Shown here piece by piece: positions 1 through 19,456 of a stretch of 46,908 nucleotides of DNA. Positions within the stretch are counted from its first letter, which is position 1, and every line of letters begins with the position of its first letter. The position numbers and the translations under genes were made by a program. This DNA comes from Candidatus Thorarchaeota archaeon AB_25 (lineage in GTDB: Archaea > Asgardarchaeota > Thorarchaeia > Thorarchaeales > Thorarchaeaceae). The stretch spans positions 1 through 46,908 of the forward strand of contig MEHG01000006.1 of assembly GCA_001940705.1 (NCBI GenBank), in the 5' to 3' direction. The notes under the pieces were generated by a model that worked only from the letters and a program-made list of their open reading frames with translations, did no database searches and was not told the DNA's origin.

Positions 1-601
1 CAAAAAAAGTGAGGGCCGTCCTCTCAAGAGCGATGTTCTTCAGAATGACTTCATTATGGAGATATTCTACACCATCCCGCTTCACATGGTAGAGCAGTCT
101 TGTGAACTCGACTGATTGAATATCTGTCCTCCACTCATAGAGCTGGTCTTCGGGGGAAACCAATTTTAACTGCGGTTCATCTTGTCCCATAAGGGCTGGA
201 AAGATGAGACCCTCTGTTCCTTGGACCCATATGTCTACCGATCCACAGTCTGGAACAGCAGTAACCAGTCCACGAGAGTCCGTTATCCCGTATTTCTTTG
301 AACCCACACCACCGATCAGTGACCAATTTCGGTACGAGTTGTTTGGTAGCTCAGTAATCAGGGTTCCTTCCTTGTCGAGTGCTTTCATGGTAAGGTCTAC
401 CCAAGAGGGAAGCATCCATGGCTCAGCCTCAAGATAGACAGATGCGTTGAGTTGCTCTCTCAGACGCTCTATTTCCGCGTCTACGGGCATACCTGTTTCA
501 GGGAGTGCAATATCATGGTTCATTGCCACTCTTCTAAAACGTTTCAAACGAGCAAAATCATCAATGGCCAAGTCAGAGAACCTCATCAGGAACGTATTCA
601 T
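1..601 (-). CDS. Partial protein of unknown function (C-terminus beyond window)
   Basis: An uninterrupted minus-strand reading frame of 200 codons starts at an ATG at 601 (first residues MNTFLMRFSDLAID) and runs off the left edge, so the C-terminus is missing. An in-frame TAA lies eight codons upstream of that ATG, which limits the start to this ATG or one five codons later. After about residue 60 the protein looks like a beta-rich domain with scattered Trp, Gly and Tyr and no signal peptide or membrane segment. The end of the visible part (EVILKNIALERTALTFF) resembles the beta-sandwich N-terminal region of some archaeal carbohydrate-active or glucoamylase-like proteins. That resemblance is only an impression and I assign no function. 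It is divergent from the ABC operon that begins at 808. Confidence 0.7.
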   Translation of the reverse strand, partial: MNTFLMRFSDLAIDDFARLKRFRRVAMNHDIALPETGMPVDAEIERLREQLNASVYLEAEPWMLPSWVDLTMKALDKEGTLITELPNNSYRNWSLIGGVGSKKYGITDSRGLVTAVPDCGSVDIWVQGTEGLIFPALMGQDEPQLKLVSPEDQLYEWRTDIQSVEFTRLLYHVKRDGVEYLHNEVILKNIALERTALTFF

Positions 602-807
602 TCTGTACTTATGACTGTTAGATTAGGGTTCTAGACCTTTATTTGTGTGTTTAGGCTAGCTAGCGAAAAAACGACCTGAGCCCGTTTCCATGAACTAAAT
701 GACAGGTGGTAAACCCTTATTTGAGTTCAACTAGAGGTTGCCTTCATCAAGTATAGCAAAGAGTCCATAGATGACTTTAGAGCCACCAAAGAAAAGAGGG
801 AATCAAA

Positions 808-1989
808 ATGGCGGAAGTTCTCACCAAACCATCCAGACGTATCAGAAACATGGTGATGAAAGAACTTCGACTTATTATCAAGGACAAGGTCGCCCTCCTC
901 CTGATTTTCCTACTTCCTGCTGCACTCATAGGGATGCTCTGGTATGTCACTGATAGTAGTAGTTTGGGCGGAATGTCTCTTGGTGGTACATCTGACATAG
1001 GCGGCGGTGATGACGCCGGAAATGAAACAAGTTCTGACAGTGGTGTTCGACTGGGTATTGTAGATTTAGACACAACTGAAGACTATGGAGCAGAGGACCT
1101 CTCTGAAAACCTGACTGAATTTTACGATACGATGGCAAATGTCACTATGTATGAAACACCTGCAGATGCATATAGAGCACTGTATGAAGAACAGATTGAT
1201 GCCTACATCGTGATTCCTTATGGATTTGAGCACAACCTCACAATAAACGAACCCACATATATTGAAGTCCATTATGATGGAAATGACCTCTTTGGATCAT
1301 TTTCCATCCAAGGAGTTGTTCAAGCAGGTACAATCTTGTTCAGAGTTTCGAAACTCTGGATTCGCTCAGAAGTCTTTCCCGGCATGGTTGTCGAGTTCAC
1401 ACCAGAGGGCGGATACCTTGAGAGTGTGTTTGGTGGGTTCATTGTCATTTTCTCGAGCTATCTCGGGATTGCTATGACTTCTGCACAATCGATAGTGGGT
1501 GATACACCGCTGCGAAGAATGCTACTTACTCCAACCAGTAGGCTTGAAGTGATTGTAGCTAAGGTCATTGGGTATGTGATCATTGGATTCTTCCAGTCAC
1601 TCCTATTAGTCACATTATGGGTCCTAGCCTTTAATCTCAGTCTCAATACGAGCTTCATCTCTCTTGTGATAATCATGAGTCTGAGCTCGCTCACTGGGTC
1701 AGCCACAGGGATACTAATCTCAGCTGTCGCAGGTACAAGACTTCAGGCAAACCAGATGTTCCTGTTCGTCCTATTTGGGACACTTATACTCTCAGGCTTT
1801 TTCCTTGATGTTGGCGTTTTAGATAAAATACTTCCAATGAATCAAGGTATGAATCTGCTCATAGACACCGCCTTCAAAGGGCTTACGATTTTAGAAGTGA
1901 TAGATAGGGTCCTCATATTGTTTGGATTCTCAGCTATCGCGATTTTAGCTGCTACTTTCATATTCTCTAAAAAACCAACACTGGGTTAG
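808..1989 (+). CDS. ABC-2 type transporter permease
   Basis: The 393-residue protein has the ABC-2 permease layout: a basic N-terminus, a first membrane helix at about residues 28-46, a large extracytoplasmic loop of roughly 150 residues rich in Asp, Gly and Ser, then five hydrophobic segments between about 205 and 390. The segment with VGDTPLRRMLLTP, where a cytoplasmic coupling stretch follows a helix, is typical of the family (known-family reasoning). It is the first gene of a plus-strand operon. Its stop is at 1989 and the next gene's start signal begins at that stop, so translation is probably coupled. It is the only permease in the operon although two ATPases follow, so it may act as a homodimer served by two different ATPases or pair with a permease encoded elsewhere. 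The substrate cannot be read from the sequence. Confidence 0.88.
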   Translation: MAEVLTKPSRRIRNMVMKELRLIIKDKVALLLIFLLPAALIGMLWYVTDSSSLGGMSLGGTSDIGGGDDAGNETSSDSGVRLGIVDLDTTEDYGAEDLSENLTEFYDTMANVTMYETPADAYRALYEEQIDAYIVIPYGFEHNLTINEPTYIEVHYDGNDLFGSFSIQGVVQAGTILFRVSKLWIRSEVFPGMVVEFTPEGGYLESVFGGFIVIFSSYLGIAMTSAQSIVGDTPLRRMLLTPTSRLEVIVAKVIGYVIIGFFQSLLLVTLWVLAFNLSLNTSFISLVIIMSLSSLTGSATGILISAVAGTRLQANQMFLFVLFGTLILSGFFLDVGVLDKILPMNQGMNLLIDTAFKGLTILEVIDRVLILFGFSAIAILAATFIFSKKPTLG

Positions 1990-2001
1990 GTGATAATCAA
2001 G

Positions 2002-3681
2002 ATGATTCAAGATTCAGACAGAATGGATTCACCTGATGAAGAAAAACCAGTCTTCGTTGAGGAGGCATACTTCTCCGGAGCTCGATTAAGTGATGCTATT
2101 GATTGGTGTATCACACGACAAGACCGTGAGCTGCATTGCGAGGTCGAAGGAAAATTGACCTCAACTGGCAAAGAAGTGAAGTTCAAGGGTCGAGTCTTGA
2201 AAGTCAAGAAAGGAGTCCTGACTCGACGGATTGCGATATTTGTGGAAGAAGACCTTCGCAGGCAACGAGCTGGAGAACTAGACAAGGTACTCACTGTTGG
2301 TGGTGAAGGATCAAGCCAGGAAGATGTAGCAGCCACACAGATAACGGTTCAGAACTACTTGAAACGTAACATGGCAGACGACCTGTACTATGATGGTCGT
2401 GACCTCCAACAAGCTGTGAAAGACCTAGAGAAGATGAAGAGCCAAGAGGTTGCATGCACAGTTTGGGGACGCAGAGGTTCAGACAAAACGATGATTATGA
2501 TCAAAGGAACGATTGTTGGTGCATCTACTAGACCAGCTCCTATTCTCCCAGAGGGATCACTTGAAGTTCGAGTTGCACCAGAGGAGGAAGTCGGAGACCC
2601 GAAGATCTACATGGTTGCACAGCCACAGCTTTTAATCGGTCCAAGCTATAATCCAAACCTCACGGTTTTAGCAACCAAGGTCCATATACAGCCTTTTGCT
2701 TGGAAACTGGCTCCTGAATACAGAGATGTACTTGCAGCACGAAATCTAACAGTGACAGTCAAGAGTGGACAGAAACTCATCGAAAATGTGTCGTTCTCCA
2801 TGCGTGAAGGAGAAATGCTGGCTATCATTGGCGAGTCTGGAGCTGGAAAATCGACCACGGTAAAGGCATTAATCGGTGATATTCCTAGTACAGGCGTTGC
2901 AAGAATAGCTGGAATTGACTCGAAACAGACCCAGAAAGTACGGCACTTTTTCGGGTATTGTCCTCAGGACCTATCCTATATGTACGAAACCTTCACGCCT
3001 CTTGAAAATATCATCGCCTTTGGAAAGCAGTACGACATTCCTGAGTGGCAACTCATTCAGAGAGGCAAAACCCTTCTTAGAGACTTTGGGATTTTGGAGA
3101 AAGGAAACAACCCCACCAAAAAACTCAGTGGTGGAGAGCAGAGAAGGGTTTCCATTGGCATTGCACTGGCTCATAAACCAAAAGTGTTGCTCATGGACGA
3201 ACCTACATCGGGCTTAGATCCTGATAACAGGTATGAACTTTGGAGTTATCTTTCGTATATCAATCAGGAATATGGAACATCGATAATTGTCATTACACAC
3301 TATCCTGTAGAAGCTGAGTTCTGTGACAAGGTAGCAGTCTTCATGCGGGGTAAGAGTCTCGTAGCTTTCGGCAGTCCTGCTACTCTCAAAGAATCAATGC
3401 CTTCCCGAGGTTTCGCCGTGGGTATAGTACTTGAAGAGGTGGACCCGCGAGCACGGAAGACACTCGAGGGGGTTAAGGGCGTTCGTTTTGTGCTCCAGAG
3501 AGGAGAACTTCTGAAGATGTTCACAGATGAGCCTTTAGAAGTGATTGCAGAGAGATGCGTCACAGCTTTGAAGGAACAGAAAATTGCAGTAAAGATTGTG
3601 AAGACCAAGTCGGTAGCTGACATGGTGGACTACTATGTGGCTATTACTCGAGGTCTTATTCAAGGCACAATTGTGAAGTGA
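2002..3681 (+). CDS. ABC transporter ATP-binding protein with duplicated N-terminal domain
   Basis: The C-terminal half is a complete ABC ATPase: Walker A GESGAGKST at about residue 277, Q-loop region CPQD, signature LSGGEQRR, Walker B LLMDEPTSGLD and an H-loop ITHY. A roughly 90-residue C-terminal tail resembles the accessory domain of ABC-2 ATPases. The first 230 or so residues are unusual. Two related units, starting at AYFSGARLSDAI and LYYDGRDLQQAV, share a Y-x-G-x-x-L-x-x-A pattern, then an E-x-x-C-x-V-x-G stretch and a KG-x-V strand, so this is a tandem duplication of a domain I do not recognise. I chose the ATG at 2002 because AGGTGA sits at proper spacing upstream; a GTG at 1990 is the alternative and would add four residues. 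It should energise the permease encoded just upstream. Confidence 0.88.
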   Translation: MIQDSDRMDSPDEEKPVFVEEAYFSGARLSDAIDWCITRQDRELHCEVEGKLTSTGKEVKFKGRVLKVKKGVLTRRIAIFVEEDLRRQRAGELDKVLTVGGEGSSQEDVAATQITVQNYLKRNMADDLYYDGRDLQQAVKDLEKMKSQEVACTVWGRRGSDKTMIMIKGTIVGASTRPAPILPEGSLEVRVAPEEEVGDPKIYMVAQPQLLIGPSYNPNLTVLATKVHIQPFAWKLAPEYRDVLAARNLTVTVKSGQKLIENVSFSMREGEMLAIIGESGAGKSTTVKALIGDIPSTGVARIAGIDSKQTQKVRHFFGYCPQDLSYMYETFTPLENIIAFGKQYDIPEWQLIQRGKTLLRDFGILEKGNNPTKKLSGGEQRRVSIGIALAHKPKVLLMDEPTSGLDPDNRYELWSYLSYINQEYGTSIIVITHYPVEAEFCDKVAVFMRGKSLVAFGSPATLKESMPSRGFAVGIVLEEVDPRARKTLEGVKGVRFVLQRGELLKMFTDEPLEVIAERCVTALKEQKIAVKIVKTKSVADMVDYYVAITRGLIQGTIVK

Positions 3682-3685
3682 TACG

Positions 3686-6600
3686 ATGGCAGGTCTGAAA
3701 CGAACAATGGAGCATCTGACCCAGAGAGTGGCAGCATACTTGCTTGTATGCATCCTCATGGTCAGTGGACTCTCTGTTCTACCACCTGTTGTCGGCATAA
3801 ACCCATACGTCACAGAGCCTACGGAAAAGATTGATGATTCGCTGCTCAATCAAACATCGATGGATCAGTACCTTGACGTGCTTGTCGGATACGACCAAGA
3901 TATTGGTGATTTCAAGGCAAAGAACGCAGTCTTTCTTGCGGACCGGACCGCGGAGATGATTGACGTTTTCGAAACGATTGGTATGCTCCATGTGAAAATG
4001 CTAGGCTCAGCAATAGTGAATCTTGCCAAAGAGGAGTTCATCACCAAGATATGGTCCAACGAGATTACACCTATAGAACAGGCGCAGACAACTGCATCCA
4101 CTGCATCTTCATCCGAGGACTATGTCCCGCTCATTGACCGCATTGGTGCCAGAGACCTCTGGGATGCGGGTTACAACGGCACGGGTACTGTCATTGCAGT
4201 CCTTGATACAGGTGTTGATCCACTTCAAAGTGATTTCAGTGTGGCCGCTTTCGCATCCTTTGTGGAAGCCGATACACTACCCCTCGACCTCATTGGACAT
4301 GGAACATATGCAGCCTCAATTGCTGTTGGTTCTGGAAACATGTCTGATGGAGTCTATGCTGGCATTGCACCAGGTGCAACACTACTATCTGCAAAGGTGA
4401 CATTGGGAGGTCTCTTTGCATCACCCAGCTGGATTGTCTCTGGTATAGAGTGGGCAAGCAGCAGGGGTGCAGACATCATTCTTTTACCATTCAACACTCT
4501 TGGCGCACCAGATGATGCGGTCTCTGAAGCGGTCGAAATAGCAGCTGAAAAGGGAATCTTTGTTGTTGCTGCATCTGGTGATGATGGACCAGACTATTTG
4601 ACGGTGATGTCTCCCGGTGGAAACGCTGCTGCGTTCTGTGTTGGTGCTTATGATACTGAACTGCTAGAGATTCCTGATTTCTCAGGAAGAGGACCATCAC
4701 TCTCATTATTGACCAAACCAGACCTGGTGGCTCCAGGTGTGGGTGTTGTTGGTACCAAACCATTTGCAGGTCTTGGAGGTCTTGGTTTTGGTGATATCGG
4801 ACTAGGAGATCTTGGAGACCTTGGTGGTCTAGGAGGCCTCCTAGGGGGTTCTATTGGTGAAACATTCGATGAGAATTATACTATTGCCGACACAACAGCA
4901 GCCTCTGCAGCCATCACCGCAGGTGCCGCAGCAATTTTACTGCAGGCATTCGACAGAGTCAGTCCAATCGCATTAGGCAATGTTCTTCGTGACACAGCCA
5001 CACCTATTGGCTACGGGGCAAATGATGGTGGAGCAGGTCTTCTCAATCTGCAAGCAGCATTTGACTACTTGAGCACACAACAGACACCTGCAGACCCACA
5101 TGATCGAATAACAAGTTTGCCGCTCCTAGCACTCGGTTTGATCTCTGCTAGCGGCACAGATGCATCAACTACTATGTTGATGAGCAGCTTCGGAACCACA
5201 CTTGTTGCAATAGACACGCGTAACCCTCAGGACTCCGGGATTCACATGATGATGGGTATGTTCTCTCTCAAGTGGAACAATGAGGAACCAACAAATTTGA
5301 TGATGTTTAATGTGAAAAGTGAGTTTCATCAAGTGGTATCGTCATCAGGTGATGTGCCTTACAACCGTTACATTGGGGTGCTGTCCAACAATGACTCGGT
5401 CTATATCACATTCTTGGTCGAGTCCTATAATCTCACTACATATGACTCACTTCCTTTGACTGCATTTAGAATCACACCATTCATTCTCAACCTTGGGAGT
5501 GAACCTGTAGAGAATGTGAGCTTGTATGTTTCATATTCCCTTGACCTCTACCTCGATGGCGAGGATGACCATGGAAAGTATGACCTTGATAACCAACAGC
5601 TATTTGCTTATGGTCTCTCAGAGAGCTTTGGTAATTTCTATGTAGGTATGAATTCGAGCATCCCCCTCTCAGCATTTGAGGTGGGAAACTCATCAAACAT
5701 TGGGAGTCATGTTTCAGATAACAACCTGACAGGATCTACTTTCTTTGATGGCGATGTCGGGTTAGCAATGCAGTGGGACTTCGGAACTCTCGATGTCGAT
5801 GAACTTACAAATGTTACAATAGCCTTGGGCTTTGGTGAGAACCGAACTGTTCTTGATGCATCAATAGATGCGATGTGGGAGAATGATGTCCCATCTGGTG
5901 TCCTGGACCAGGGAGACCTCATAGTCGTGGAAGCTGATGTTCCCAGAATCGCGAAGGCAGGTCATACCTATCAGTCAAAAGCGGTCATAATGAACATTGG
6001 AGAGGAGAACTCTACAGCAATTGGAGCAATGCTGGTGATTGAAGGCTCTACCGAAGATGGAACCATGTTTGCAAGATACTTCTCTTATGATGAGGTTGAA
6101 CCCTTCAAGGCTAAGGTTCTAGTCACAGACTGGCGTCCAGAAACCGAAGGCGTGAGAACGGCGGCATGGGCTGTTTCAACAGGACTAGATCAAATCGTCA
6201 ATCTTGTATCTAACCCAATGATAGCACTGCTCACAACAGGCGTGGGGATTCTGGATGATTTCATTATGCGTGATGTGTTCATCATCGATCCGATATCTTC
6301 AACGTCGGTATTTCCAAAACAGTTACCATTTGCACCATTTGATATTCGATTTCCTGCAGACTTCGGAATGTATAGCTTTGTCCTGTCAACCACAGAGTCA
6401 CTTGGAAATCTGACTATCATGAACCACGGAAACGCTTCAGACTGGGGTAACATGTCCCTAACTGCTGCAGATACGATTGAAGGATTCTATGACTTCTCAC
6501 TGTTCTTGTTAGCACCACCAATTGGCATGGATGGCTATCACAAGTGTGACTATGTGCTAGAAACAGAGTACGGATGGAGCACTAACATCACACTCGAAAG

Positions 6601-8059
6601 AATCTTAGAGTATCCTCGCGCAATGATGCTCCTTGACACGTCGCACGGGGGCGGTTTTGGGTCAATATTAGGGGATGCAGGAGGATTTGGCGACACTGGT
6701 AACTTGACAGGAGATACGGGAGGAATAGGATTCCCACTTGCTCAGGAGGACAGCTCCAGTGATGACGAGGATATGCTCACAGGGTTTAGTCTTAATGATC
6801 TGGGGAGCTTAGATTCTCTCACAGGTCTCTTTGACTCGTTCAGAATGACGACATTTTCAGGTCTCTCTAACATGAAGAAGACCATGGCGGATGTGGGTCT
6901 CGATCTCATAGAAACACCTGGAATGGAGTTAGATGAAGGCTTACTCGCAACGTTCTCGACAGTGTTCATAATTGCTCCAACTGAGGACTTCAACCAGACA
7001 GAGATCGATATCCTCAGAGAATTCTCACAGAATGGAGGAACATTGATTGTTCTTGGTGACAATGACGACAATGCGAATACCACCATACTCAACCCTTTGT
7101 TGATGGAGTATGGTTACTATCTTGACGGAAGTCATAGTGAGGACAACACAACAGACATCATGACAACAACACCTCTGGGACTAAATCTGGAGAGTATCTG
7201 GCTTGGTGGTGGAACCTATGTCATGAACAACCAGTCCAACGCAAATGCAAGACTCAATGGAAACAGCGTTGTCATGTTGGACACGACTGATCCTGAACTT
7301 GCGATCTTTGGCTCTTCGAAGATATTCATGAACAAGAACCTAGTAAAGTGCAACAACAGCATGTTACTCGACAACCTGAACGAATTCCTGTTACGAAACA
7401 CCCTCACCACCTCGACTAGTCTCTCAGAAAACACATCGTACTACCAAGCAGGTCTGAGTGTCTATGTCAACCTAGAGTTGACAGATTATGATGGAAATCC
7501 TGTCAATGACCTGTTCATTGCAATTGCATATGAGCTTCCAAACGGAAGTTTGTCATTCTTCATTGCGGGTTTCGTTGAAGATGGACTCTACTCCTCACAG
7601 TTTGCGCCTATTTACTGGAGAAGGGCAGGTAGAATCAACGGCATATTCCTCATTTTAGGTGATGAAAACTACGCTATGACTTATGCTAGCGTCAGCTTCT
7701 ACTTGTATGAACTCGAACCTACAACAACACCTCCACCTCCCTTTGTGTTGTTGACCATGGCTGAACTGGCACTCATCACATCTCTAGTAATCTTCGGCGG
7801 AGTGATTGGAGTCCTTTACTGGAACCGTCGAAGAATGAGGAGACGTCTTAGAATTCCTGAGATTGAATCTGAACTGGTTCGAGAGATAGACAATACACTC
7901 AGCGCGCTCCTTGCTGCTTTTACACAACTTGAGGATCTCATCCGAAGGGAAGACCTTGACAGAATACAGAAGGTAGAAGCTCTACGGGTGCTCATGCAAG
8001 ACATTGAGGAAGGACGTAAGATGTTCGACCGTGTGAGCGAAAAGGTAGGAGGTGTGTGA
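3686..8059 (+). CDS. Giant membrane-anchored S8 subtilisin-like protein, probably catalytically inactive
   Basis: The 1457-residue protein has a signal peptide (hydrophobic core about residues 16-36) and an S8 fold at about 130-470. The catalytic Asp (VLDTGVD, D174) and His (GHGT, H205) are present. The oxyanion Asn position reads Asp (ASGDDG, D299). The Ser motif, normally GTSxA, reads ADTTAASAA at 401-409, so aligning on the helix that follows puts Ala405 where the nucleophile belongs. A Gly/Leu-rich insert lies just before it (about 355-390). A long beta-rich extracytoplasmic region follows, then a GATase/GldG-like Rossmann segment at about 1046-1140 (known companion domain of ABC-2 systems). 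One membrane helix lies at about 1353-1379, followed by a 78-residue charged, probably coiled-coil cytoplasmic tail. It sits between two ABC ATPases and is probably a structural or binding partner of the transporter. Confidence 0.85.
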   Translation: MAGLKRTMEHLTQRVAAYLLVCILMVSGLSVLPPVVGINPYVTEPTEKIDDSLLNQTSMDQYLDVLVGYDQDIGDFKAKNAVFLADRTAEMIDVFETIGMLHVKMLGSAIVNLAKEEFITKIWSNEITPIEQAQTTASTASSSEDYVPLIDRIGARDLWDAGYNGTGTVIAVLDTGVDPLQSDFSVAAFASFVEADTLPLDLIGHGTYAASIAVGSGNMSDGVYAGIAPGATLLSAKVTLGGLFASPSWIVSGIEWASSRGADIILLPFNTLGAPDDAVSEAVEIAAEKGIFVVAASGDDGPDYLTVMSPGGNAAAFCVGAYDTELLEIPDFSGRGPSLSLLTKPDLVAPGVGVVGTKPFAGLGGLGFGDIGLGDLGDLGGLGGLLGGSIGETFDENYTIADTTAASAAITAGAAAILLQAFDRVSPIALGNVLRDTATPIGYGANDGGAGLLNLQAAFDYLSTQQTPADPHDRITSLPLLALGLISASGTDASTTMLMSSFGTTLVAIDTRNPQDSGIHMMMGMFSLKWNNEEPTNLMMFNVKSEFHQVVSSSGDVPYNRYIGVLSNNDSVYITFLVESYNLTTYDSLPLTAFRITPFILNLGSEPVENVSLYVSYSLDLYLDGEDDHGKYDLDNQQLFAYGLSESFGNFYVGMNSSIPLSAFEVGNSSNIGSHVSDNNLTGSTFFDGDVGLAMQWDFGTLDVDELTNVTIALGFGENRTVLDASIDAMWENDVPSGVLDQGDLIVVEADVPRIAKAGHTYQSKAVIMNIGEENSTAIGAMLVIEGSTEDGTMFARYFSYDEVEPFKAKVLVTDWRPETEGVRTAAWAVSTGLDQIVNLVSNPMIALLTTGVGILDDFIMRDVFIIDPISSTSVFPKQLPFAPFDIRFPADFGMYSFVLSTTESLGNLTIMNHGNASDWGNMSLTAADTIEGFYDFSLFLLAPPIGMDGYHKCDYVLETEYGWSTNITLERILEYPRAMMLLDTSHGGGFGSILGDAGGFGDTGNLTGDTGGIGFPLAQEDSSSDDEDMLTGFSLNDLGSLDSLTGLFDSFRMTTFSGLSNMKKTMADVGLDLIETPGMELDEGLLATFSTVFIIAPTEDFNQTEIDILREFSQNGGTLIVLGDNDDNANTTILNPLLMEYGYYLDGSHSEDNTTDIMTTTPLGLNLESIWLGGGTYVMNNQSNANARLNGNSVVMLDTTDPELAIFGSSKIFMNKNLVKCNNSMLLDNLNEFLLRNTLTTSTSLSENTSYYQAGLSVYVNLELTDYDGNPVNDLFIAIAYELPNGSLSFFIAGFVEDGLYSSQFAPIYWRRAGRINGIFLILGDENYAMTYASVSFYLYELEPTTTPPPPFVLLTMAELALITSLVIFGGVIGVLYWNRRRMRRRLRIPEIESELVREIDNTLSALLAAFTQLEDLIRREDLDRIQKVEALRVLMQDIEEGRKMFDRVSEKVGGV

Positions 8060-8060
8060 T

Positions 8061-9059
8061 GTGGGAAAATCTGATGCTAAAGAAACACATCGAGAGATTG
8101 ACATCATAGATCTCAAGGTGGCTTTTGGTGATTTCTTCGCACTGAAGGGAGCGTCCTTCTTTGCAAACAAGAGGGAGTTCCTTGGCATCATAGGAGCCTC
8201 AGGAGCTGGAAAAACAACAGTCCTACGTGTTCTTACAGGTCAGATTGATCCCACTGACGGACAGGCCTTTGTTGGTGGTTACGATGTCACTAAGAAAGCC
8301 AAACTGATCAGCCTTCTCGTAGGCTATGTCCCTCAGCTAGAACATCTGAGCCTATATTATGATTTCAACCCACTTCAAAATGCCCAGTTCTTCGGACGTA
8401 TGTTCGGTCTCAGACCAAAGGAGATTGAAGAACGCGCTAGAAATGTCCTCACCATCCTGGGATTCGATGAGGAACTCATTACAAAGAGGGTGGATAGACT
8501 CTCTGGCGGAGAGCGTAAGAGGGTATCAATCAGTCTTGGGATGATTCACGACCCACCAGTGCTCCTACTGGATGAGCCAACCACGGGATTGGATGCACAC
8601 CTCAGGCATGAAACCCTGAACTATCTGAAGGAGCTCAACTACGAGCTGGGCACGACAATGGTCATCATTAGTCATGACCTTGAGATAGTTGATTACTGTA
8701 CACGAGTCTGCCTTCTGGAGGAGGGTAACGTGAGTCAATTCGGAACTCCAGAGGAACTAATCTCAACACTCCCAGGAAAAGGAGAAAGTATCCGTGTTGT
8801 TCTCCAGGCAATGACGCCGGAGATCATCAAACGGGTGGACTCACTCCCAGGAGTACAATACACTGCACAAGCTGGTAGGAATGCAATGAAGCTGTTCATA
8901 GACAATCCTAGTGAACAGCTCCTGCCAATCATCAATAAACTAAATGAAATGAAACTACCATTTGAAGAGGTCAGTCTCGTAGAGGCGGACTTCTTTGACT
9001 ATTTCCAGGTGAAACCCTGGAAGCAAATTCCTAGAGAGATAGGAGGAACCGCACCATGA
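8061..9059 (+). CDS. ABC transporter ATP-binding protein
   Basis: A standard-length ABC ATPase of 332 residues with Walker A GASGAGKTT, Q-loop VPQLEH, signature LSGGERKR, Walker B LLLDEPTTGLD and an H-loop ISHD. It also has a roughly 90-residue C-terminal accessory domain like that of the ATPase encoded at 2002, which suggests the two are paralogues, but this one lacks the duplicated N-terminal domain. The GTG at 8061 is chosen because AGGAGGT lies seven bases before it. A GTG at 8052 overlaps that Shine-Dalgarno and is unlikely. The gap to the preceding stop is one base, and the next gene starts inside this gene's stop codon (ATGA), so all are co-translated. It probably forms an ATPase heterodimer or alternates with the first ATPase on the single permease. 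Confidence 0.9.
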   Translation: MGKSDAKETHREIDIIDLKVAFGDFFALKGASFFANKREFLGIIGASGAGKTTVLRVLTGQIDPTDGQAFVGGYDVTKKAKLISLLVGYVPQLEHLSLYYDFNPLQNAQFFGRMFGLRPKEIEERARNVLTILGFDEELITKRVDRLSGGERKRVSISLGMIHDPPVLLLDEPTTGLDAHLRHETLNYLKELNYELGTTMVIISHDLEIVDYCTRVCLLEEGNVSQFGTPEELISTLPGKGESIRVVLQAMTPEIIKRVDSLPGVQYTAQAGRNAMKLFIDNPSEQLLPIINKLNEMKLPFEEVSLVEADFFDYFQVKPWKQIPREIGGTAP

Positions 9060-12000
9060 AGACCTATCATGTGATCATAGCCCTACTTGTCGTCTGCGCA
9101 CTTGCAGGACTGCAACTCCAGACGACTGATACGGGTGTACAACCCGTTGCAATCACGAGTCCACAGGTTCAACAGGTTCCACACTCAATCGCAGAGATTG
9201 CACCGTTCGACACAGCCATTGTTTGGTCCACCACAGTGGGCAACCAGGTCGTAGATGTTGTTGTCGACAATTTCGATGCAGATGTGCGAGATGAGGTGGC
9301 AGTCATCGTTCAAAATGGTTCTTTATTCCTGTTCGATGATGACAGCTCACTGTTGTGGAAGCTGAAACTTGGCTCGACACCACATGCACTGGCCTCATTT
9401 GATGGCACAGCCGCCACCGGTCAGGAGATGCTCATAGGAACAGACTCTGGCATTGTTGTAGTCGGAGCTAATAAGGCAGTTCAGATGAACATGTCCCTCC
9501 CAGAGCCGGTTTATGCTGTTGCAGGTGGTAATTTCGATGCAGATGGACTTGAAGAGGTCGTTGTGGGCTGTGACGACTTCTACGTCTATGCTTTCGAGAT
9601 TGACACGACTCCAGAGTGGAGTTATTTAAGCAATGGCAGGGTGCGTTTGCTTGATGTTGCGGATATTGACTCTGACTCTCGAGCTGAAGTGGTTGTGGCC
9701 TCTGAGGGAAGGCGGTTCACCCTCTTGCAGGACACAGGCGCTATGCTGTTCGAGAAGACAAGCGCCACTGCTATCAATGTGGTCGCCATGGGAGACCTCA
9801 CTGCGGCTGCAAACTGGGATATTCTCTACGGTAGTAGCAATGGAACCCTAGCTGTCTGGTACGACACCGGAACGCTTGCTTATGGCCTAGACCTTGAGGA
9901 CAGTGTCACTTCCCTTGAGGTAGGTAATCTAGTTACAGGCGGTAGGCACGAGTTTGCTCTCGGGACAGATGCCAATCAACTTCGCGTCTATGACTCAGGT
10001 GGCGCATTGCTCTGGAACAAGACCCTAGGTGGTGTGCCCAATGAGATACTCTTCCCGAACGTTGGAGCGACAACCAATGCACAAGTCCTCGTTGGAATTC
10101 CCAACACGCTTAACACCTATAATGCAACAGGATGGCGTGTAAACCAACTCACTGCCAACGGTTTCACTGGTGCTCTTGCATTTGGAGACCTCGACAACTT
10201 TGGCGGCGACGAATATGCTTTTGGTACCAATTTCGGAGTAGTGTCATCCTATGGACGCGACTTTGACAAAGACCAACTCGCAGACGCTCGCGAGATCATC
10301 ATTGAGGGGACATTATACGACGACTCAGACTCGGACAACGACAATTTGAGTGATGGACAGGAAGTCCTGACCTACGATACCAATCCTCTTGCAGCTGATA
10401 CTGACGGAGACAAACTCTCAGACTTTGCAGAGGTCATCACCCATGGGACCGATCCCAACGAAGCGGACTCGGATTCAGACAATCTCACTGATTGGCAGGA
10501 GATCTACCTCGGGACCAATCCAAATCAGGCGGATACTGACGGAGATTCACTTACTGACTACGAAGAGAACAATGTGACTCTCACCCTTCCAACAGACCCA
10601 GATAGTGATTCTGATGACATCAATGATGCACAGGATGACAACGATGGGGATGGGCTCACTAACATCCAAGAGGTTCGTCTGTCCAAGACCGATCCCAATG
10701 ACGTCGACTCGGATGGAGATCTCATAACAGACTATTATGATGACCAGGACGCGGACAATCTTGCCAACTGGAAAGAGATACAGGTCGGCACTGGTTTATA
10801 CGACCCTGATAGCGATGATGACCTCCTGCTCGATGGATATGAAGTGAAGACAAGTAAGACCTCACCATTGAATGAAGATACAGATGGAGATTCGCTTACA
10901 GACTTTGAAGAAGTGATGATTGTCCACTCAGACCCACTCAAGGCGGATGGGGACGAGGATGGACTTTCAGACTATGACGAATATGTCATCTACGGTACCG
11001 GTGTGTTGGACAGTGACAGTGATGATGACACATTAAGTGATGGAGCAGAGGTCAATACCTACTTCACGGACCCGTTGAACAACGACACCGACTCTGACCT
11101 CATTTCAGATGGACTAGAGGTGAAGGTCTGGAAATCTGACCCCAACTCTGCGGACACTGACCTCGATAATCTCAACGACTATTTAGAATGTTACGTCTGG
11201 CACACAAACGTCACAAACAGTGATACAGACGGAGATACATTGGGAGACGGTCTGGAGGTTCTCACCTACGGCACAAATGCCTCTCTTGTAGACACGGACT
11301 TCGACCTAATTCGTGACCCTGATGAAGTCAAGTACCTTTCCAGTGGATGGGACCCCACGAATCCAAACACCTTCGATGCAGGCACGCTAGACGGAAACTG
11401 GGACTTTGACGGTGACCGTCTCACTAACTATCAGGAGATCTACCTGACACGGACGAATCCGACACTCATGGACTCGGGAGGACTACCTCTCACTGATGAC
11501 CTTGAGGATAGTGACCTTGACGGGTTGAACAACTACGATGAGTTATACGTGACCTTCACACATCCTAGGAGACCGGACACAGATGAGGACAAAGTAAAAG
11601 ATGGAGACGAGGTATTAATCCTGCTCACAGATCCCAACGATGAGGATAGCAACGATAATGGCATCACTGACTATGACGAGGACTTTGACGATGATGGGTT
11701 GAGTAATGGAATCGAGCTCTACATTACACAGACGCTACACAATGATAGTGACACGGATAATGACCTCATATCGGACTATTATGACGATGAAGATGGTGAC
11801 TCCCTCGAGAACTGGTTCGAGGTGGAGATGACCGGGACCGACCCACTCTACAACGACACGAACGATAACGGTGTCTTCGATTGGGAGGAGGACCCGGACA
11901 ACGATGAACTAACCAATCTAGAGGAACAGGAGAACGACTGTGACCCATTGGCTGCAGACACTGACTTAGACCAATTAACTGATGGCGAAGAAGTTCTCTA

Positions 12001-15000
12001 CACCCACACAGACCCTACTGACAGCGATGATGACGATGATGGGCTATTAGATGGACAGGACGACCAAGACAATGACGGTCTCACGAACCTTGAAGAACTG
12101 CGAACCTACGACACGAATGTCACCCTCTGGGACACTGATGGAGACCGAATCCGAGATGGGCTTGAGATTGATGTGGGTCTCAATGCCACCAACCCGGATA
12201 GTGATGATGATGGTTTGTTTGATGGATGGAACGATATTGTCCCCAATGGCATATACGAGCCTCATTTAGGCGAGCGGGGAGAGGATGTCAATGCGAACGG
12301 TGTTGTGAACGTTGGCGAAACTTCGCCCTTCGAAAAAGATAGTGATTTTGATGGTTTGGATGATGCTGAGGAGTACGTCTACGGCACATCCCCAATAAAT
12401 GAGGACTGTGACGAGGACGGTCTATTGGATGGAGAGGAAATTAACGACTACTTCACTAACCCTCTCAACAACGACACTGATTCAGACTTGCTATCAGACT
12501 GGGTAGAGGTTGAGCAGACTCTCACAGACCCTAACAACATGTGGTATAATGGGACCCACACAGATTACATGATTGACAGCGATGGCGATTCACTAACAAA
12601 TGGGGATGAGGTGTACATCTATGAGACAGACCCCGGAGATTTCGATAGTGACAACGATAATATCGGAGATGGAATGGAGGTACTCGTCTACCTCTCAGAC
12701 CCATTGTCAAATGATAGTGATGGTGATGGACTATTAGATAATGAGGAGCTATTCTACGGTACTGAGATCAATATACAGGACACTGATGGTGATCAACTTG
12801 ATGACTTCGTGGAGATCGAGTATCTGGGAACCAATCCCTTGCTACCATCCACATACATGAACGGCACTCTTGATGGAAACCTCGACCATGATGGTGATGG
12901 TCTAACCAATGCAGTGGAGATTTATGGATACCACTCAAACGCCACCTCTAAGGACAGTGATTTAGATGGCCTAGAAGACGGATTTGAGGTGTTTGTATCA
13001 GGTACATCACCTACTGACATGGATAGTGATAATGACCAGCTCAGTGACTATGACGAGTACTGGATCTATCACACGGACCCGAGCGGGAGTGATAGTGACT
13101 CGGATGGACTCAGTGATTATGTTGAGGTCTATGTTTCACTCACTTCACCCACTTCTTGGGACAGCGATGGAGACACATTATCTGATGGAGATGAATGGAA
13201 CACGTACGGGACTAACCCTAACTCCATCGATACAGATGATGACCTTCTCAGTGACAAGCTCGAGTTGGACATAGGCACAGATCCTCTACTGAATGATACA
13301 GACTCGGATACGCTTTCAGACTGGGAAGAGTGGGTTCTCTATGATACTGACCCAACAGAGGCAGACATCGACGAAGATGGATTAAATGATGCAGAGGAAC
13401 TCGAAAACGGTACTGATTGGGAGAACTGGGATAGTGACTTTGACACCATCAGTGACGGAGATGAAGTGAACATCTACGAAACCTCACCAATCAATGATGA
13501 TACAGATTCTGATAATTTAGCAGACGGAGATGAGCTGTTCAACAGCGGTACTGACCCACTTCTAGTGGACACAGATGGTGATACGATTCCTGATGACCTA
13601 GATGACCAGGATGCAGATGGTCTCACAAACGCAGATGAAATATACCTCTACGAAACCAACTGTACTCTGATTGACACAGACTTCGATATGCTATCAGATT
13701 TTGATGAGATATTTGTCTGGGACACCTCACCCAAACTATTTGATAGTGATGAGGATGGCCTCGGAGATTGGGACGAGCTCTTCTACTGGTCTAGCGACCC
13801 CAACGACAGAGACAGCGACGATGATGGTCTGGAAGACTCAGAGGAGGCCCTAACATGGCACACTCTCCTGAACAGCACAGATACTGACATGGATGGCGTA
13901 AGTGACTATGATGAGATTAAGGTCTTCGAGACCGATGCTTTGCACTGGGACACGGATTCGGACTCTATTTCTGATGGTGATGAGCTGTACGTATACAACA
14001 CATCACCCCTACGCAAAGATACTGACTCAGACAAACTTCTCGATGGACAGGAAATCAATGGTTTCTATATGACCTTCAACATCAGTGGTGTGATAGATAG
14101 TCGGTGGGTTTACACGAACCCAAGAGTGAGTGACACTGATCGAGATACGCTTTCAGATTTCGAAGAGGTGAATAGGACAGGGACAGACCCGACACTCTTC
14201 AGTACGCAAGGCAATACCATCTCTGATGCAGACTGGGACATAGACAACGATATGCTCACGAATGCTCAGGAGATTCGATTAACTAAAACCAATCCAAGAA
14301 TCTATGATAGTGATTCTGATGGCAAGTCAGATGGAGCAGATGATGAGGATAGAGACCTACTCACCAACTACTGGGAGTGTGTCCTGACTGAGACTGACCC
14401 GCGAGACCCGGACAGTGATGACAACGGAATCTCAGACTATAATGATGACGAGGATGGCGATACGCTGTCGAACGGTGAGGAGTGTAAGGACTACGGAACG
14501 GACCCACTAGAGAGAGACAGCGATTCTGATGGGCTAGATGATAACGAAGAGATTGAGGTCTGGGGAACAGACCCACTCAACAAAGACAGTGACTTCGATG
14601 GGCTTGAAGATGGACCAGAGGTCAATGATTGGGGAACCATGCCAGACTCTAATGACACAGATTTGGACTGGCTCTCAGACTGGGAAGAGGTGGTCCTAAC
14701 AGGCACTGACCCGACCACCAACATGACACACCCAGGCACACTTGACAGACTATGGGACAGCGATTCTGATGGGCTCACAAACTGGGACGAACTGAGGGTT
14801 TACTTCACACTGCCAAATGACCCTGACTTTGATAATGATGATCTCATTGATGGACTTGAGATCTCCTTGGGCACACAAATCAACGGGGTAGACAGTGACT
14901 CTGACCTTTTGACTGATGGACAGGAGTATCTGCTCTATGGTACAGACCCATTGTTACCAGACAGTGACGGAGATGAGCTTTCTGATTACGATGAGGTGAT

Positions 15001-15877
15001 GGTGTATGAAACTGACCCACTTGAGGAAGACAGCGACGGCGACACCATCAATGACCATGACGAGGTCTTCGGTGTGAATCCTCTGGGAATTGCGACAAAC
15101 CCACTGGAGGATGACGGGGACTTTGATGGACTCAATGACTATGAAGAACTCTTCACCTATGGTTCTAATCCTGCATCTCCAGACGGAGACTCAGATGGCC
15201 TCAGCGACTTCCTGGAGGTCACGGAGTATTCCACCCAACCGATGAACAATGACACGGACTCGGATATGCTCTCTGATGGTGCAGAGGTCAATGTCTATGG
15301 GACAAACCCACTACTGGAAGACACCGATGGTGACGGCATAAATGACTACAGGGAGGTCATAGTACTGGGTACTGACCCGAACAGAAGAGACAGTGACGGG
15401 GATGGCATAATGGATGGCCAAGACTTCCTACCGACGATTCACTGGATATTCCCGATAGCGGGACTCCTCGTGCTGGCGTTCGTGGGTGCAGTGGGCGTGA
15501 AACGGTTCAGAGACACCCACATGGGGGATGAGTTCGTGACCAAGGCAGAGCCTGCGAGCCTGGGCTTAGAGCCTGGCATGGACATTGCGGTGGAATACAA
15601 GATCCGGGACGGGCGCGTCATCTTCGGAGTGGTGGTGCGGAACGGTGCTGACAACCCGATGCAGAACGTGCAGGTGACACTGGGCGTACCGGACCTGACT
15701 GATACAATAAAGACAGAGAACCTAGGCACAGTGGATCCGGACACAGTATCAGTGGCTGAGATTGAGTTTGAGCTGCAGCCTGGTGCAGAGGGTGAGCTCG
15801 TAGGTATGATTGAGTATGACAGCATCGAGGGTGAGCACAAGGTAGTGAACCTGAAGCCCGTGAAGATTGTAGCTTAG
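9056..15877 (+). CDS. Giant surface protein: propeller head, calcium-binding TSP3-like repeats, membrane anchor
   Basis: The 2273-residue protein begins with a signal peptide (VIIALLVVCALAGL). Residues of about 50-400 form FG-GAP-like propeller blades with repeated D-x-D-x-D-x-x-E loops (for example NFDADGLEEVVVG). From about 402 to 2128 it is almost entirely a DSDGDGLSDGxE...YGTDPLxxDTD repeat, thrombospondin type 3-like, each unit carrying Asp-rich calcium loops. A membrane helix lies at about 2129-2150 (WIFPIAGLLVLAFVGAVGV), followed by a basic stop-transfer and a roughly 120-residue cytoplasmic beta-sandwich-like domain. Its ATG overlaps the stop of the ATPase gene, and AGGAGG precedes it. 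By family knowledge such repeats make stiff, calcium-stabilised rods, so an adhesin, receptor or stalk is likely. The tail suggests it communicates with the cell interior. Confidence 0.9.
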   Translation: MKTYHVIIALLVVCALAGLQLQTTDTGVQPVAITSPQVQQVPHSIAEIAPFDTAIVWSTTVGNQVVDVVVDNFDADVRDEVAVIVQNGSLFLFDDDSSLLWKLKLGSTPHALASFDGTAATGQEMLIGTDSGIVVVGANKAVQMNMSLPEPVYAVAGGNFDADGLEEVVVGCDDFYVYAFEIDTTPEWSYLSNGRVRLLDVADIDSDSRAEVVVASEGRRFTLLQDTGAMLFEKTSATAINVVAMGDLTAAANWDILYGSSNGTLAVWYDTGTLAYGLDLEDSVTSLEVGNLVTGGRHEFALGTDANQLRVYDSGGALLWNKTLGGVPNEILFPNVGATTNAQVLVGIPNTLNTYNATGWRVNQLTANGFTGALAFGDLDNFGGDEYAFGTNFGVVSSYGRDFDKDQLADAREIIIEGTLYDDSDSDNDNLSDGQEVLTYDTNPLAADTDGDKLSDFAEVITHGTDPNEADSDSDNLTDWQEIYLGTNPNQADTDGDSLTDYEENNVTLTLPTDPDSDSDDINDAQDDNDGDGLTNIQEVRLSKTDPNDVDSDGDLITDYYDDQDADNLANWKEIQVGTGLYDPDSDDDLLLDGYEVKTSKTSPLNEDTDGDSLTDFEEVMIVHSDPLKADGDEDGLSDYDEYVIYGTGVLDSDSDDDTLSDGAEVNTYFTDPLNNDTDSDLISDGLEVKVWKSDPNSADTDLDNLNDYLECYVWHTNVTNSDTDGDTLGDGLEVLTYGTNASLVDTDFDLIRDPDEVKYLSSGWDPTNPNTFDAGTLDGNWDFDGDRLTNYQEIYLTRTNPTLMDSGGLPLTDDLEDSDLDGLNNYDELYVTFTHPRRPDTDEDKVKDGDEVLILLTDPNDEDSNDNGITDYDEDFDDDGLSNGIELYITQTLHNDSDTDNDLISDYYDDEDGDSLENWFEVEMTGTDPLYNDTNDNGVFDWEEDPDNDELTNLEEQENDCDPLAADTDLDQLTDGEEVLYTHTDPTDSDDDDDGLLDGQDDQDNDGLTNLEELRTYDTNVTLWDTDGDRIRDGLEIDVGLNATNPDSDDDGLFDGWNDIVPNGIYEPHLGERGEDVNANGVVNVGETSPFEKDSDFDGLDDAEEYVYGTSPINEDCDEDGLLDGEEINDYFTNPLNNDTDSDLLSDWVEVEQTLTDPNNMWYNGTHTDYMIDSDGDSLTNGDEVYIYETDPGDFDSDNDNIGDGMEVLVYLSDPLSNDSDGDGLLDNEELFYGTEINIQDTDGDQLDDFVEIEYLGTNPLLPSTYMNGTLDGNLDHDGDGLTNAVEIYGYHSNATSKDSDLDGLEDGFEVFVSGTSPTDMDSDNDQLSDYDEYWIYHTDPSGSDSDSDGLSDYVEVYVSLTSPTSWDSDGDTLSDGDEWNTYGTNPNSIDTDDDLLSDKLELDIGTDPLLNDTDSDTLSDWEEWVLYDTDPTEADIDEDGLNDAEELENGTDWENWDSDFDTISDGDEVNIYETSPINDDTDSDNLADGDELFNSGTDPLLVDTDGDTIPDDLDDQDADGLTNADEIYLYETNCTLIDTDFDMLSDFDEIFVWDTSPKLFDSDEDGLGDWDELFYWSSDPNDRDSDDDGLEDSEEALTWHTLLNSTDTDMDGVSDYDEIKVFETDALHWDTDSDSISDGDELYVYNTSPLRKDTDSDKLLDGQEINGFYMTFNISGVIDSRWVYTNPRVSDTDRDTLSDFEEVNRTGTDPTLFSTQGNTISDADWDIDNDMLTNAQEIRLTKTNPRIYDSDSDGKSDGADDEDRDLLTNYWECVLTETDPRDPDSDDNGISDYNDDEDGDTLSNGEECKDYGTDPLERDSDSDGLDDNEEIEVWGTDPLNKDSDFDGLEDGPEVNDWGTMPDSNDTDLDWLSDWEEVVLTGTDPTTNMTHPGTLDRLWDSDSDGLTNWDELRVYFTLPNDPDFDNDDLIDGLEISLGTQINGVDSDSDLLTDGQEYLLYGTDPLLPDSDGDELSDYDEVMVYETDPLEEDSDGDTINDHDEVFGVNPLGIATNPLEDDGDFDGLNDYEELFTYGSNPASPDGDSDGLSDFLEVTEYSTQPMNNDTDSDMLSDGAEVNVYGTNPLLEDTDGDGINDYREVIVLGTDPNRRDSDGDGIMDGQDFLPTIHWIFPIAGLLVLAFVGAVGVKRFRDTHMGDEFVTKAEPASLGLEPGMDIAVEYKIRDGRVIFGVVVRNGADNPMQNVQVTLGVPDLTDTIKTENLGTVDPDTVSVAEIEFELQPGAEGELVGMIEYDSIEGEHKVVNLKPVKIVA
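10259..15420 (+). repeat. Long in-gene array of Asp-rich TSP3-like coding repeats
   Basis: Over about 5.1 kb the reading frame repeats a unit of mostly 19-27 codons with consensus D(S/T)D-x-DxLSDxxEV-x-x-YGT-DP-x-x-xD. The DNA copies have diverged, with different codons for the same residues, so the array is conserved at protein level and is not a recent nucleotide expansion. Shorter variants such as DDDGDGLTN interrupt the register at intervals. Long open frames on the opposite strand here are by-products of the biased codons and are not genes. Confidence 0.88.
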
Positions 15878-16790: not shown

Positions 16791-17993
16791 CTAGACTTCT
16801 CTAGTATCAGTGGTGTATGCACCCACTGACCGTGCAATCTCTTGGACCTCATTTGGGTGACCGAATAGAGCGCAGGGAGTGTCCTCGTTGGTGAGGAGGT
16901 GCTCATTCTGACGAATGGCTTCGAATAACGGACTTGCTAGCCCCTCTCTGAAGGAGGTATTGGAGAGATTGTGAGTTGCCAAATTAGATACTGGACAAGC
17001 CGTGAGGTCTCCCGAGGGAGTGACATGTGCGAATCCACGACCAGCAGAAACGCAACCGCCAAAATAGTCCTCATCTCCGGGCGAATGGATGACGTACAAT
17101 TTGTTACGTCGACGATATTCGAGGACTCTCGAACGAAACTCTTCACGCTCGGCAGGAGAAAGCATGAGCGTCTTATCATAGGATCCACAGGTGTCGCCAG
17201 TGAGGTTCTCGGCCATCACAGGGATGTATTCGATGAAGACACCCACAAGGATGCCGAGTTTGACATAGTGGTCTAAGTTCTTTTTCTGCATCCAGAATCT
17301 ATAGTTCTCATTAGTGATCGTAACGGAGATGCCGGTTGGGACACCACTGGACTTCAATCGTGTCAGGGTCTCAAGAGCTTGTTTGTGAACACCTTGTCCT
17401 CGACGGGAGTCAGTTGTTTCTTCACTACCCTCGACACTGACAATAACTGCCACATTCTTAGTGCTGCGTAGGCGCTTATGGTCAGTGCGAGTAAGTGCAG
17501 TACCATTGGTCAGGATGATAAAGAACCGGTCATTGAAGGACTCACATAACTCGAGCAAGCCACGGAACATGAAAGGCTCGCCTCCAGCTATGATGAAACC
17601 AAAAACACCCAGTTCACTTGCATCCTTGATGATGTCATACCACTGCGCCCAGTCAAGGGTCTTTCTCGCATCAGAACACTCAGTCCGTGGTCTGTTATCA
17701 AGTGTCCCTACTGCAGCAGCATAACATCCTGCGCAGCTAAGGTTGCATTGAGAGGTGATACTTAGGATCAGAAAGGGAGGTACTCTCAGTCCAGCCTCTT
17801 TGGCCTCACGTCTGAGCTTCTCGGTCTTCTTGTAGGACCGTGCGAGTCTAATACCTGCCCGGATATATCGGGGATTACGAAGCACCCAGGGAACGAAGAG
17901 GCGGGACATGTTAGGATCGAGTCCATCAAGGACCTTCTTCATCTGTCCTGGTGACTTAATTCTATTAGCGTGCTCTTTGACTGTTGTTAACAT
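16791..17993 (-). CDS. Radical SAM protein with C-terminal Cys-rich SPASM-like region
   Basis: The 400-residue protein carries the radical SAM cluster motif CNLSCAGC (CxxxCxxC) near residue 97, followed by a GGEPF motif and a SAM-barrel pattern (VAVIVSVEG, GISVTITNEN). The C-terminus has further Cys residues (FGGC, LTACPVS, TPCALFG) like a shortened SPASM/auxiliary cluster region, so it probably modifies a peptide or other large substrate. The ATG at 17993 is preferred. A strong minus-strand TATA (TTTATATAG, near 18044-18052) predicts a transcript starting around 18020, so the ATG at 18038 would lie upstream of it. It is divergent from a flavodoxin, a plausible electron donor, across a shared operator array. 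Its substrate is unknown. Confidence 0.85.
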   Translation of the reverse strand: MLTTVKEHANRIKSPGQMKKVLDGLDPNMSRLFVPWVLRNPRYIRAGIRLARSYKKTEKLRREAKEAGLRVPPFLILSITSQCNLSCAGCYAAAVGTLDNRPRTECSDARKTLDWAQWYDIIKDASELGVFGFIIAGGEPFMFRGLLELCESFNDRFFIILTNGTALTRTDHKRLRSTKNVAVIVSVEGSEETTDSRRGQGVHKQALETLTRLKSSGVPTGISVTITNENYRFWMQKKNLDHYVKLGILVGVFIEYIPVMAENLTGDTCGSYDKTLMLSPAEREEFRSRVLEYRRRNKLYVIHSPGDEDYFGGCVSAGRGFAHVTPSGDLTACPVSNLATHNLSNTSFREGLASPLFEAIRQNEHLLTNEDTPCALFGHPNEVQEIARSVGAYTTDTREV

Positions 17994-18041
17994 CTTACTT
18001 TCCCAACTTGGTAGCGGCGCGTATGTTATACTACACATCAA

Positions 18042-18108: not shown

Positions 18109-18165
18109 TAAAAGATAGGGTAGCCACCGCCTATGAATTTTGAAACATAGGGGAGTTGGAAGATA

Positions 18166-19396: not shown

Positions 19397-19432
19397 GAGA
19401 ACTAGAGTTACAAAGTTTGATAAGAAGAGAGG

Positions 19433-19449: not shown

Positions 19450-19456
19450 GACGTGC

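What the first reader, a model, noticed from the sequence alone, without database searches (positions are those of the whole stretch)
808..15877. Five-gene ABC system: one permease, two unlike ATPases, a pseudo-subtilase with GldG-like segment, and a 2273-residue calcium-repeat protein
Genes overlap or are 0-12 bases apart over 15 kb, so they are probably one functional unit. I know of no characterised ABC family with this composition. The GldF/GldG-like permease and auxiliary arrangement plus two very large extracytoplasmic proteins with cytoplasmic tails suggests a mechanical or export machine that controls a surface stalk or adhesin.
Basis: partly seen in the sequence, partly recalled or inferred. 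Interest (0 to 1): 0.75.

Follow-up and report, generated by a model that had tools for sequence, protein, structure and literature searches.

The report
Asgard ABC machine with dead protease
A run of five adjacent genes in a Thorarchaeon encodes a membrane pump of a known general type, apparently paired with a large outside-facing protein built like the eukaryotic Site-1 protease but with a dead active site; four of the genes are kept together across most Asgard archaea, the fifth (a huge calcium-binding stalk) only in Thorarchaeota, and nobody appears to have described the set.

Summary
The five genes are real, abut or overlap (gaps -8 to +4), and are under strong purifying selection. In Thorarchaeota the order permease-ATPase1-pseudo-subtilase-ATPase2-TSP3 giant is kept wherever the contig allows. 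Outside Thorarchaeota the first four recur next to each other in Hermod-, Jord/Frey-, Sigyn-, Hel- and Prometheoarchaea; the calcium-repeat protein was found only in Thorarchaeota. A DNA signature of ATPase1 scanned over 84,980 genomes hit 107 stretches, all Asgard (one mislabelled "Bathyarchaeota" bin groups with Sigynarchaeota). The pseudo-subtilase is dead by conservation: oxyanion Asn to Asp in 63/63 homologues, catalytic Ser kept in 3, yet its S8 domain is the protein's best-conserved part. Its C-terminal half carries a GIFT domain matching IFT52 and Site-1 protease, then one membrane span and a 74-83-residue cytosolic tail. The permease is not specifically GldF-like. Best reading: an Asgard-specific ABC-2 complex whose constant outer subunit is a dead relative of S1P-type membrane proteases (which Asgard also have intact), acting as cap and transmission; Thorarchaeota add a fixed-length Ca2+ stalk. 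Linkage is shown; complex, mechanism and substrate are inferred.

The parts
808..1989 (+). ABC-2 permease (PF12698), 6 predicted TM helices, ectodomain about residues 48-205
   Evidence: orthologues
1990..3681 (+). ATPase 1: two N-terminal TrmB-C-like domains plus ABC ATPase; Walker A, signature, Walker B and H-loop invariant in 29 orthologues
2047..2361 (+). first TrmB-C-like domain of ATPase 1 (PF11495, profile 162-231)
2359..2691 (+). second, duplicated TrmB-C-like domain of ATPase 1
   Evidence: hhalign between the two domain alignments E 4.9e-13
3686..8059 (+). pseudo-subtilase / GIFT protein (psub), 1457 aa
4136..5080 (+). S8 domain without Ser nucleophile and without oxyanion Asn (D174, H205 kept; D299, A405)
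   Evidence: most conserved region
6788..7465 (+). GIFT domain (matches IFT52 and Site-1 protease structures)
7760..7816 (+). single C-terminal TM helix of psub
7820..8056 (+). cytosolic tail of psub, length 74-83 aa in all but one complete homologue read
8052..9059 (+). ATPase 2 (DrrA-like ABC ATPase, motifs intact)
9056..15877 (+). 2273-aa TSP3 stalk protein: signal peptide, beta-propeller, 76 Asp-rich motifs, TM, cytosolic domain
9194..10240 (+). N-terminal beta-propeller (BBS2/BBS9/BBS7-type Pfam models above cut-off)
10259..15415 (+). TSP3-type Ca2+-motif array; 72-76 motifs in 8 orthologues
15500..15874 (+). cytosolic tail of the TSP3 protein, 68-80% identical where the propeller is 42-67%; no Pfam family

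Best explanation
The locus encodes one Asgard-specific ABC-2 membrane complex. Two different, catalytically competent ATPases drive a permease dimer. The constant outer subunit is a membrane-anchored pseudo-protease: a relative of S1P-type proteases (S8 + GIFT + TM) that lost its catalytic Ser and oxyanion Asn but kept the fold. I propose that it sits on the permease's outer face as a cap or gate, that its conserved cytosolic helical tail contacts the ATPases or permease, and that ATP cycling changes the shape of the ectodomain, either releasing an exported envelope component or moving a surface structure. ATPase 1's two TrmB-like domains would be the cytosolic sensor or substrate-recognition module. 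In Thorarchaeota a fixed-length Ca2+-loaded TSP3 stalk with its own conserved cytosolic tail is added as a surface effector. SHOWN: gene order, conservation, loss of active site, domain homologies, tail conservation, distribution. INFERRED: physical complex, capping, coupling. UNKNOWN: substrate or output.
For: Five-gene order with overlaps in all Thorarchaeota loci read; four-gene core next to each other in Hermod, Frey/Jord, Sigyn, Hel and Promethearchaeaceae clusters. Oxyanion Asn lost in 63/63 and Ser kept in only 3 of 63 homologues, yet the S8 domain is the most conserved region (e.g. 45-49% against 14-31% in Hermod) and under purifying selection (dN 0.065, dS 1.6). Tail length 74-83 aa in all but one complete homologue read. 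Homology of the C-half to intact Asgard S8-GIFT proteases (hhalign E 8.6e-29) and to IFT52 and S1P structures. Precedent from papers: the TM-anchored subtilase mycosin caps and stabilises the ESX-5 complex (PMC8131196) with protease activity dispensable for secretion (PMC5082899); in S1P the GIFT domain packs on S8 loops around the oxyanion residue (PMC11231238). ATPase motifs intact.
Against: No structure, interaction or expression data; structure prediction failed and was then switched off. In one Jordarchaeia family psub is unlinked from the ABC genes. Most Lokiarchaeaceae have a related ATPase-permease cluster without an adjacent psub. One homologue (L071) has a psub tail of only 17 residues. 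Nothing identifies a substrate. Ser is still present in 3 homologues.
Confidence: 0.45

Rival explanations
1. Ordinary ABC-2 exporter of an envelope lipid, glycan or peptide. The TrmB-like domains recognise a sugar-containing substrate on the cytosolic side (as Wzt does for O-antigen) and psub receives it outside; no mechanical function.
For: PF12698/DrrA-type subunits mostly export amphipathic substrates (established knowledge); PF11495 is a sugar-binding effector domain in TrmB (PMC4158304) and matches 20 of 25 members; the related Loki ATPase is fused to a prenyltransferase-type alpha/alpha toroid.
Against: Only the last ~70 residues of PF11495 match and the PDB match to TrmB is insignificant, so sugar binding is unproven; does not explain conserved cytosolic tails on both surface proteins.
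Confidence: 0.3
2. Mechanical machine proper: the ABC core does no transport and uses ATP to move or tension surface proteins (NosDFY/FtsEX-like logic), in Thorarchaeota a 76-motif Ca2+ stalk.
For: Near-fixed stalk length (2244-2286 aa, 72-76 motifs) and a tail better conserved than the propeller; GIFT subunit as in GldG.
Against: The stalk was found only in Thorarchaeota while the core is pan-Asgard, so the core cannot have evolved to move it; PF12698 permeases usually transport.
Confidence: 0.15
3. Co-located but functionally separate: an ABC exporter operon that happens to carry a surface pseudo-protease and an adhesin.
For: psub unlinked in one Jordarchaeia family; stalk found only in Thorarchaeota.
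Against: Linkage kept over many Asgard classes with rearranged order and strand; joint absence in G018 and G166.
Confidence: 0.1

Closest known systems
GldA/GldF/GldG ABC complex (Bacteroidota gliding/T9SS-associated)
   Same: ABC-2 core plus a membrane-anchored extracytoplasmic subunit with a GIFT-superfamily domain
   Different: GldA, GldF and GldG models not met; here two ATPases, a subunit with an S8 pseudo-protease, and TrmB-like domains on ATPase 1
Eukaryotic Site-1 protease (MBTPS1/S1P)
   Same: signal peptide, S8 domain, GIFT domain, C-terminal TM, short cytosolic tail; sequence match to S1P GIFT (E 7.5e-5)
   Different: psub lacks Ser and oxyanion Asn, has a ~400-aa insert between S8 and the GIFT-side region, and is linked to an ABC transporter
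Mycosins (MycP) of type VII secretion
   Same: TM-anchored subtilase with a structural role; best NCBIfam match of the S8 domain (87.6 bits)
   Different: below the mycosin cut-off (278.75); no ESX genes seen; pseudo-enzyme; GIFT domain
arCOG01314/DUF4350 GldG-like archaeal proteins (Makarova 2015, PMC5898192)
   Same: archaeal GldG-like ectodomain with C-terminal TM, proposed secretion or membrane-remodelling complex
   Different: those sit with COG0714-type AAA+ ATPases and vWA proteins, not with an ABC-2 pair and pseudo-subtilase
CglD / MtsD TSP3-repeat surface proteins of myxobacteria
   Same: long TSP3-type Ca2+ repeats on a surface protein
   Different: match rests on repeats only and is below both cut-offs; here propeller, TM and cytosolic tail

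Membership tests
ABC-2 (PF12698) transporter | ABC2_membrane_3 permease | tested here: met
   101.1 bits, cut-off 31.6
ABC-2 (PF12698) transporter | competent NBDs (Walker A/B, LSGG, H-loop) | tested here: met
   ATPase 1 invariant in 29 rows; ATPase 2 in 8 orthologues
GldAFG | GldA ATPase (TIGR03522) | tested here: not met
   130.9 and 99.2 bits, cut-off 402.6
GldAFG | GldF permease model | tested here: not met
   no GldF match listed at E 0.1
GldAFG | GldG (TIGR03521) / ABC_transp_aux | tested here: not met
   11.3 bits, cut-off 389.85; PF09822 28.6, cut-off 34.7
GIFT domain superfamily | GIFT domain | tested here: met
   IFT52_GIFT 33.1 bits, cut-off 27.2; IFT52 structures E 9e-12
Site-1 protease | S8 + GIFT + C-terminal TM architecture | tested here: met
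Site-1 protease | intact catalytic triad and oxyanion Asn | tested here: not met
   Asn 0/63, Ser 3/63
Mycosin (T7SS) | TIGR03921 above cut-off | tested here: not met
   87.6 bits, cut-off 278.75
CglD | NF033765 above cut-off | tested here: not met
   350.2 bits, cut-off 400
TrmB effector domain | complete PF11495 effector domain with DNA-binding domain | tested here: not met
   only profile 162-231 of 233 matches, no HTH; 20/25 members
NosDFY-type mechano-ABC | ATP-driven conformational work without substrate transport | not testable with these tools
   needs biochemistry

The most novel reading that the evidence does not exclude
An Asgard-only ATP-driven surface machine in which a catalytically dead relative of Site-1 protease is the permanent outer gear of an ABC-2 core, and which in Thorarchaeota pulls or gates a fixed-length, calcium-stiffened stalk through conserved cytosolic tails; intact S8-GIFT-TM proteases in Asgard would then be the stock from which both this subunit and eukaryotic S1P came.
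Probability: 0.15. Interest if true: 0.85.

Novelty: new variant of a known kind. Interest (0 to 1): 0.62.

Why it matters
A large, conserved envelope machine shared by most Asgard classes, seemingly undescribed, would bear on how these relatives of eukaryotes build and work their surfaces. It shows a protease fold turned into what looks like a structural part of an ABC complex, and it points to an Asgard family with the full domain layout of eukaryotic Site-1 protease, which makes the origin of that enzyme testable by phylogeny.

Tried and rejected
PDB sequence search for the ATPase 1 N-domain: only insignificant TrmB and chance hits. PDB search for the propeller and for the divergent upstream gene: none. 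Rejected: GldAFG membership (models not met); mycosin and CglD membership (below cut-off; CglD match is repeats only); non-Asgard occurrence in Bathyarchaeota (ATPase 1 of that bin groups with Sigynarchaeota); permease 2 of Thorarchaeota as the ancient heterodimer partner (tree makes it a Thorarchaeal duplicate). Literature searches for an Asgard ABC/pseudoprotease/S1P link found nothing relevant. In many Thorarchaeota loci the stretch of the TSP3 gene is withheld as N; I took it as unreadable and used the unmasked genomes.

Full report
OBSERVATION. The five ORFs lie exactly as reported on the + strand with gaps of 0, +4, -8 and -4 bases. There is no room for promoters between them, so one transcript is likely (inference). 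Pfam and NCBIfam assign: gene 1, ABC-2 permease PF12698 with six predicted TM helices; genes 2 and 4, ABC ATPases of the DrrA type; gene 3, Peptidase_S8 plus an IFT52-type GIFT domain; gene 5, a beta-propeller and TSP3 repeats. Gene 2 also carries a TrmB-C-like domain (PF11495, E 1.3e-10) in two tandem copies (hhalign E 4.9e-13).

DISTRIBUTION. The window belongs to a Thorarchaeon: nearest ATPase 1 is Thorarchaeota SMTZ1-45, 92% identical. A whole-genome search with gene 3 found near-full-length homologues throughout its family (f1) and weaker ones across the phylum. Neighbourhoods show permease-ATPase1-psub-ATPase2-TSP3 in f1 loci with enough readable contig. In Hermodarchaea (f9) the same order occurs without TSP3; in Jord/Freyarchaea (f11), Sigynarchaea (f27) and Helarchaea (f26) the genes stay adjacent with changes of strand; in Promethearchaeaceae (f18) and one Loki genus (g29) there are two permeases. 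In one Jordarchaeia family psub lies elsewhere (G004: psub C1, ATPase 1 C3). G018 and G166 lack permease, ATPase 1 and psub together.

A fixed-length DNA pattern for the ATPase 1 motif PQDLxxxYxx[FY]xxxxNxxxFGxQ[YF], checked first on the loci in hand, gave 107 stretches in 84,980 genomes. The listed and held loci are named Asgard lineages or unnamed archaeal bins, apart from a 'Bathyarchaeota' bin whose ATPase 1 groups with Sigynarchaeota at 100% SH-aLRT support. The pattern is exact, so diverged relatives outside Asgard could be missed. The permease and ATPase 1 trees broadly follow Asgard lineages, as expected for vertical inheritance.

THE PSEUDO-PROTEASE. In 63 homologues with all four positions aligned, the oxyanion Asn is Asp in all 63; the catalytic Ser is Ser in only 3, mostly Ala, Thr or Gly; Asp and His are mostly kept. 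Despite that, the S8 domain is the most conserved part of the protein (83-86% in the genus, 45-49% in Hermodarchaea, where other regions are 14-31%) and dN is far below dS (0.065 against 1.6). All five genes look to be under purifying selection; for the TSP3 gene dS is saturated.

The C-terminal half, as a profile, matches IFT52 GIFT structures (E 9e-12) and Site-1 protease residues 642-860 (E 7.5e-5). The S1P cryo-EM paper confirms that S1P has a GIFT subdomain packed on the S8 loops around its oxyanion residue (PMC11231238). Asgard genomes also hold intact S8-GIFT-TM proteins (GHGTH, GTSM, GN motifs); 124 of 195 genomes match their profile at E 1e-80, a count that includes some hits on the S8 domain alone. 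Their profile matches S1P contiguously from S8 into GIFT (E 1.4e-55), and the psub C-half is homologous to theirs (hhalign E 8.6e-29 over 393 columns). The plain reading is that psub is a pseudo-enzyme branch of an Asgard family with the S1P layout. Whether eukaryotic S1P came from that family was not tested.

TAILS. Psub ends in one TM helix and a cytosolic helical tail of 74-83 residues in f1, f9, f11, f4, f18, f25, f27 and g29; the exception is L071 (17 residues). In the TSP3 protein the propeller is 42-67% identical among orthologues outside the nearest one, the repeat array 61-73%, but the cytosolic tail 68-80%; motif number (72-76) and length (2244-2286 aa, leaving out one copy with an in-frame TAG before the tail) hardly vary. 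In the genomes searched the tail has no second close copy and no Pfam family. This argues for a cytosolic partner and for a stalk of set length. Many TSP3 genes in the collection are masked with N at exactly this position, so absence cannot be claimed in any Thorarchaeon; outside f1 no orthologue was seen.

MECHANISM. I favour a constitutive complex in which psub caps the permease and is coupled to ATP hydrolysis through its TM and tail. The closest precedent in logic is mycosin, a TM-anchored subtilase that caps ESX-5 (PMC8131196) and whose protease activity is dispensable for secretion (PMC5082899). Whether the output is export of an envelope component or mechanical work is open. The core is more widespread than the stalk, so the core's basic task is unlikely to be moving the stalk. 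The TrmB-like domains suggest cytosolic ligand sensing, but only the last ~70 residues of the family match and sugar binding is not shown.

NOVELTY. A predicted archaeal secretion or remodelling complex with a GldG-like DUF4350 protein was proposed in 2015 (PMC5898192), but with AAA+ and vWA partners. I found no paper on this ABC set, within an open-access library only. It is a new variant of the ABC-2-plus-ectodomain kind, not a new kind.

Noticed in passing
L186:2441-6385(-), L189:5056-9060(+), L199:3092-6865(-), L202:2989-5874(-), G000:C208:279-2813: Asgard genomes encode membrane-anchored S8-GIFT-TM proteases with the domain layout of eukaryotic Site-1 protease; most of those whose motifs were read have an intact active site. 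Profile match to S1P E 1.4e-55 running contiguously from S8 into GIFT.
   Followed up: partly
L059:15472-17472(-), 17611-18441(+), 18801-19901(-); similar in L061, L062: Thorarchaeota have a second permease (~43% identical, a Thorarchaeal duplicate) beside a catalytically intact-looking mini S8 protein with a GIFT-like part and, in L059, an Rce1-like CPBP protease, with no ATPase next to it; it may borrow the ATPases of the window system.
   Followed up: partly
L063:8565-11564(-) and 6872-8593(-): In Lokiarchaeaceae the ATPase 1 relative is ~1000 aa with an N-terminal prenyltransferase-type alpha/alpha toroid (PF00432, E 4e-29), beside two permeases, an ATPase 2 and a ~575-aa protein like a decayed ATPase.
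   Followed up: no
window 1-622, - strand: Divergent gene cut by the contig end; homologous (33-57%) to ~740-820-aa genes in the same place in other Thorarchaeota; no Pfam or PDB match for the L043 copy.
   Followed up: partly
window 9194-10240: The propeller of the TSP3 protein matches BBS2, BBS9 (PTHB1) and BBS7 propeller models above their cut-offs, and the neighbouring gene has an IFT52-type GIFT domain; could be generic propeller similarity.
   Followed up: no
L112: 'Candidatus Bathyarchaeota' Bin_245 contig carries the Asgard module and its ATPase 1 groups with Sigynarchaeota: likely a mislabelled or contaminated bin.
   Followed up: yes
L212 / G135:C58:2737-3111(-): TSP3 orthologue of G135 has an in-frame TAG just before its cytosolic tail: sequencing error, readthrough or a real truncation.
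   Followed up: no
L042, L044, L045, L047-L051: Stretches of about 6.7-6.9 kb at the place of the TSP3 gene read as N in many Thorarchaeota loci.
   Followed up: no
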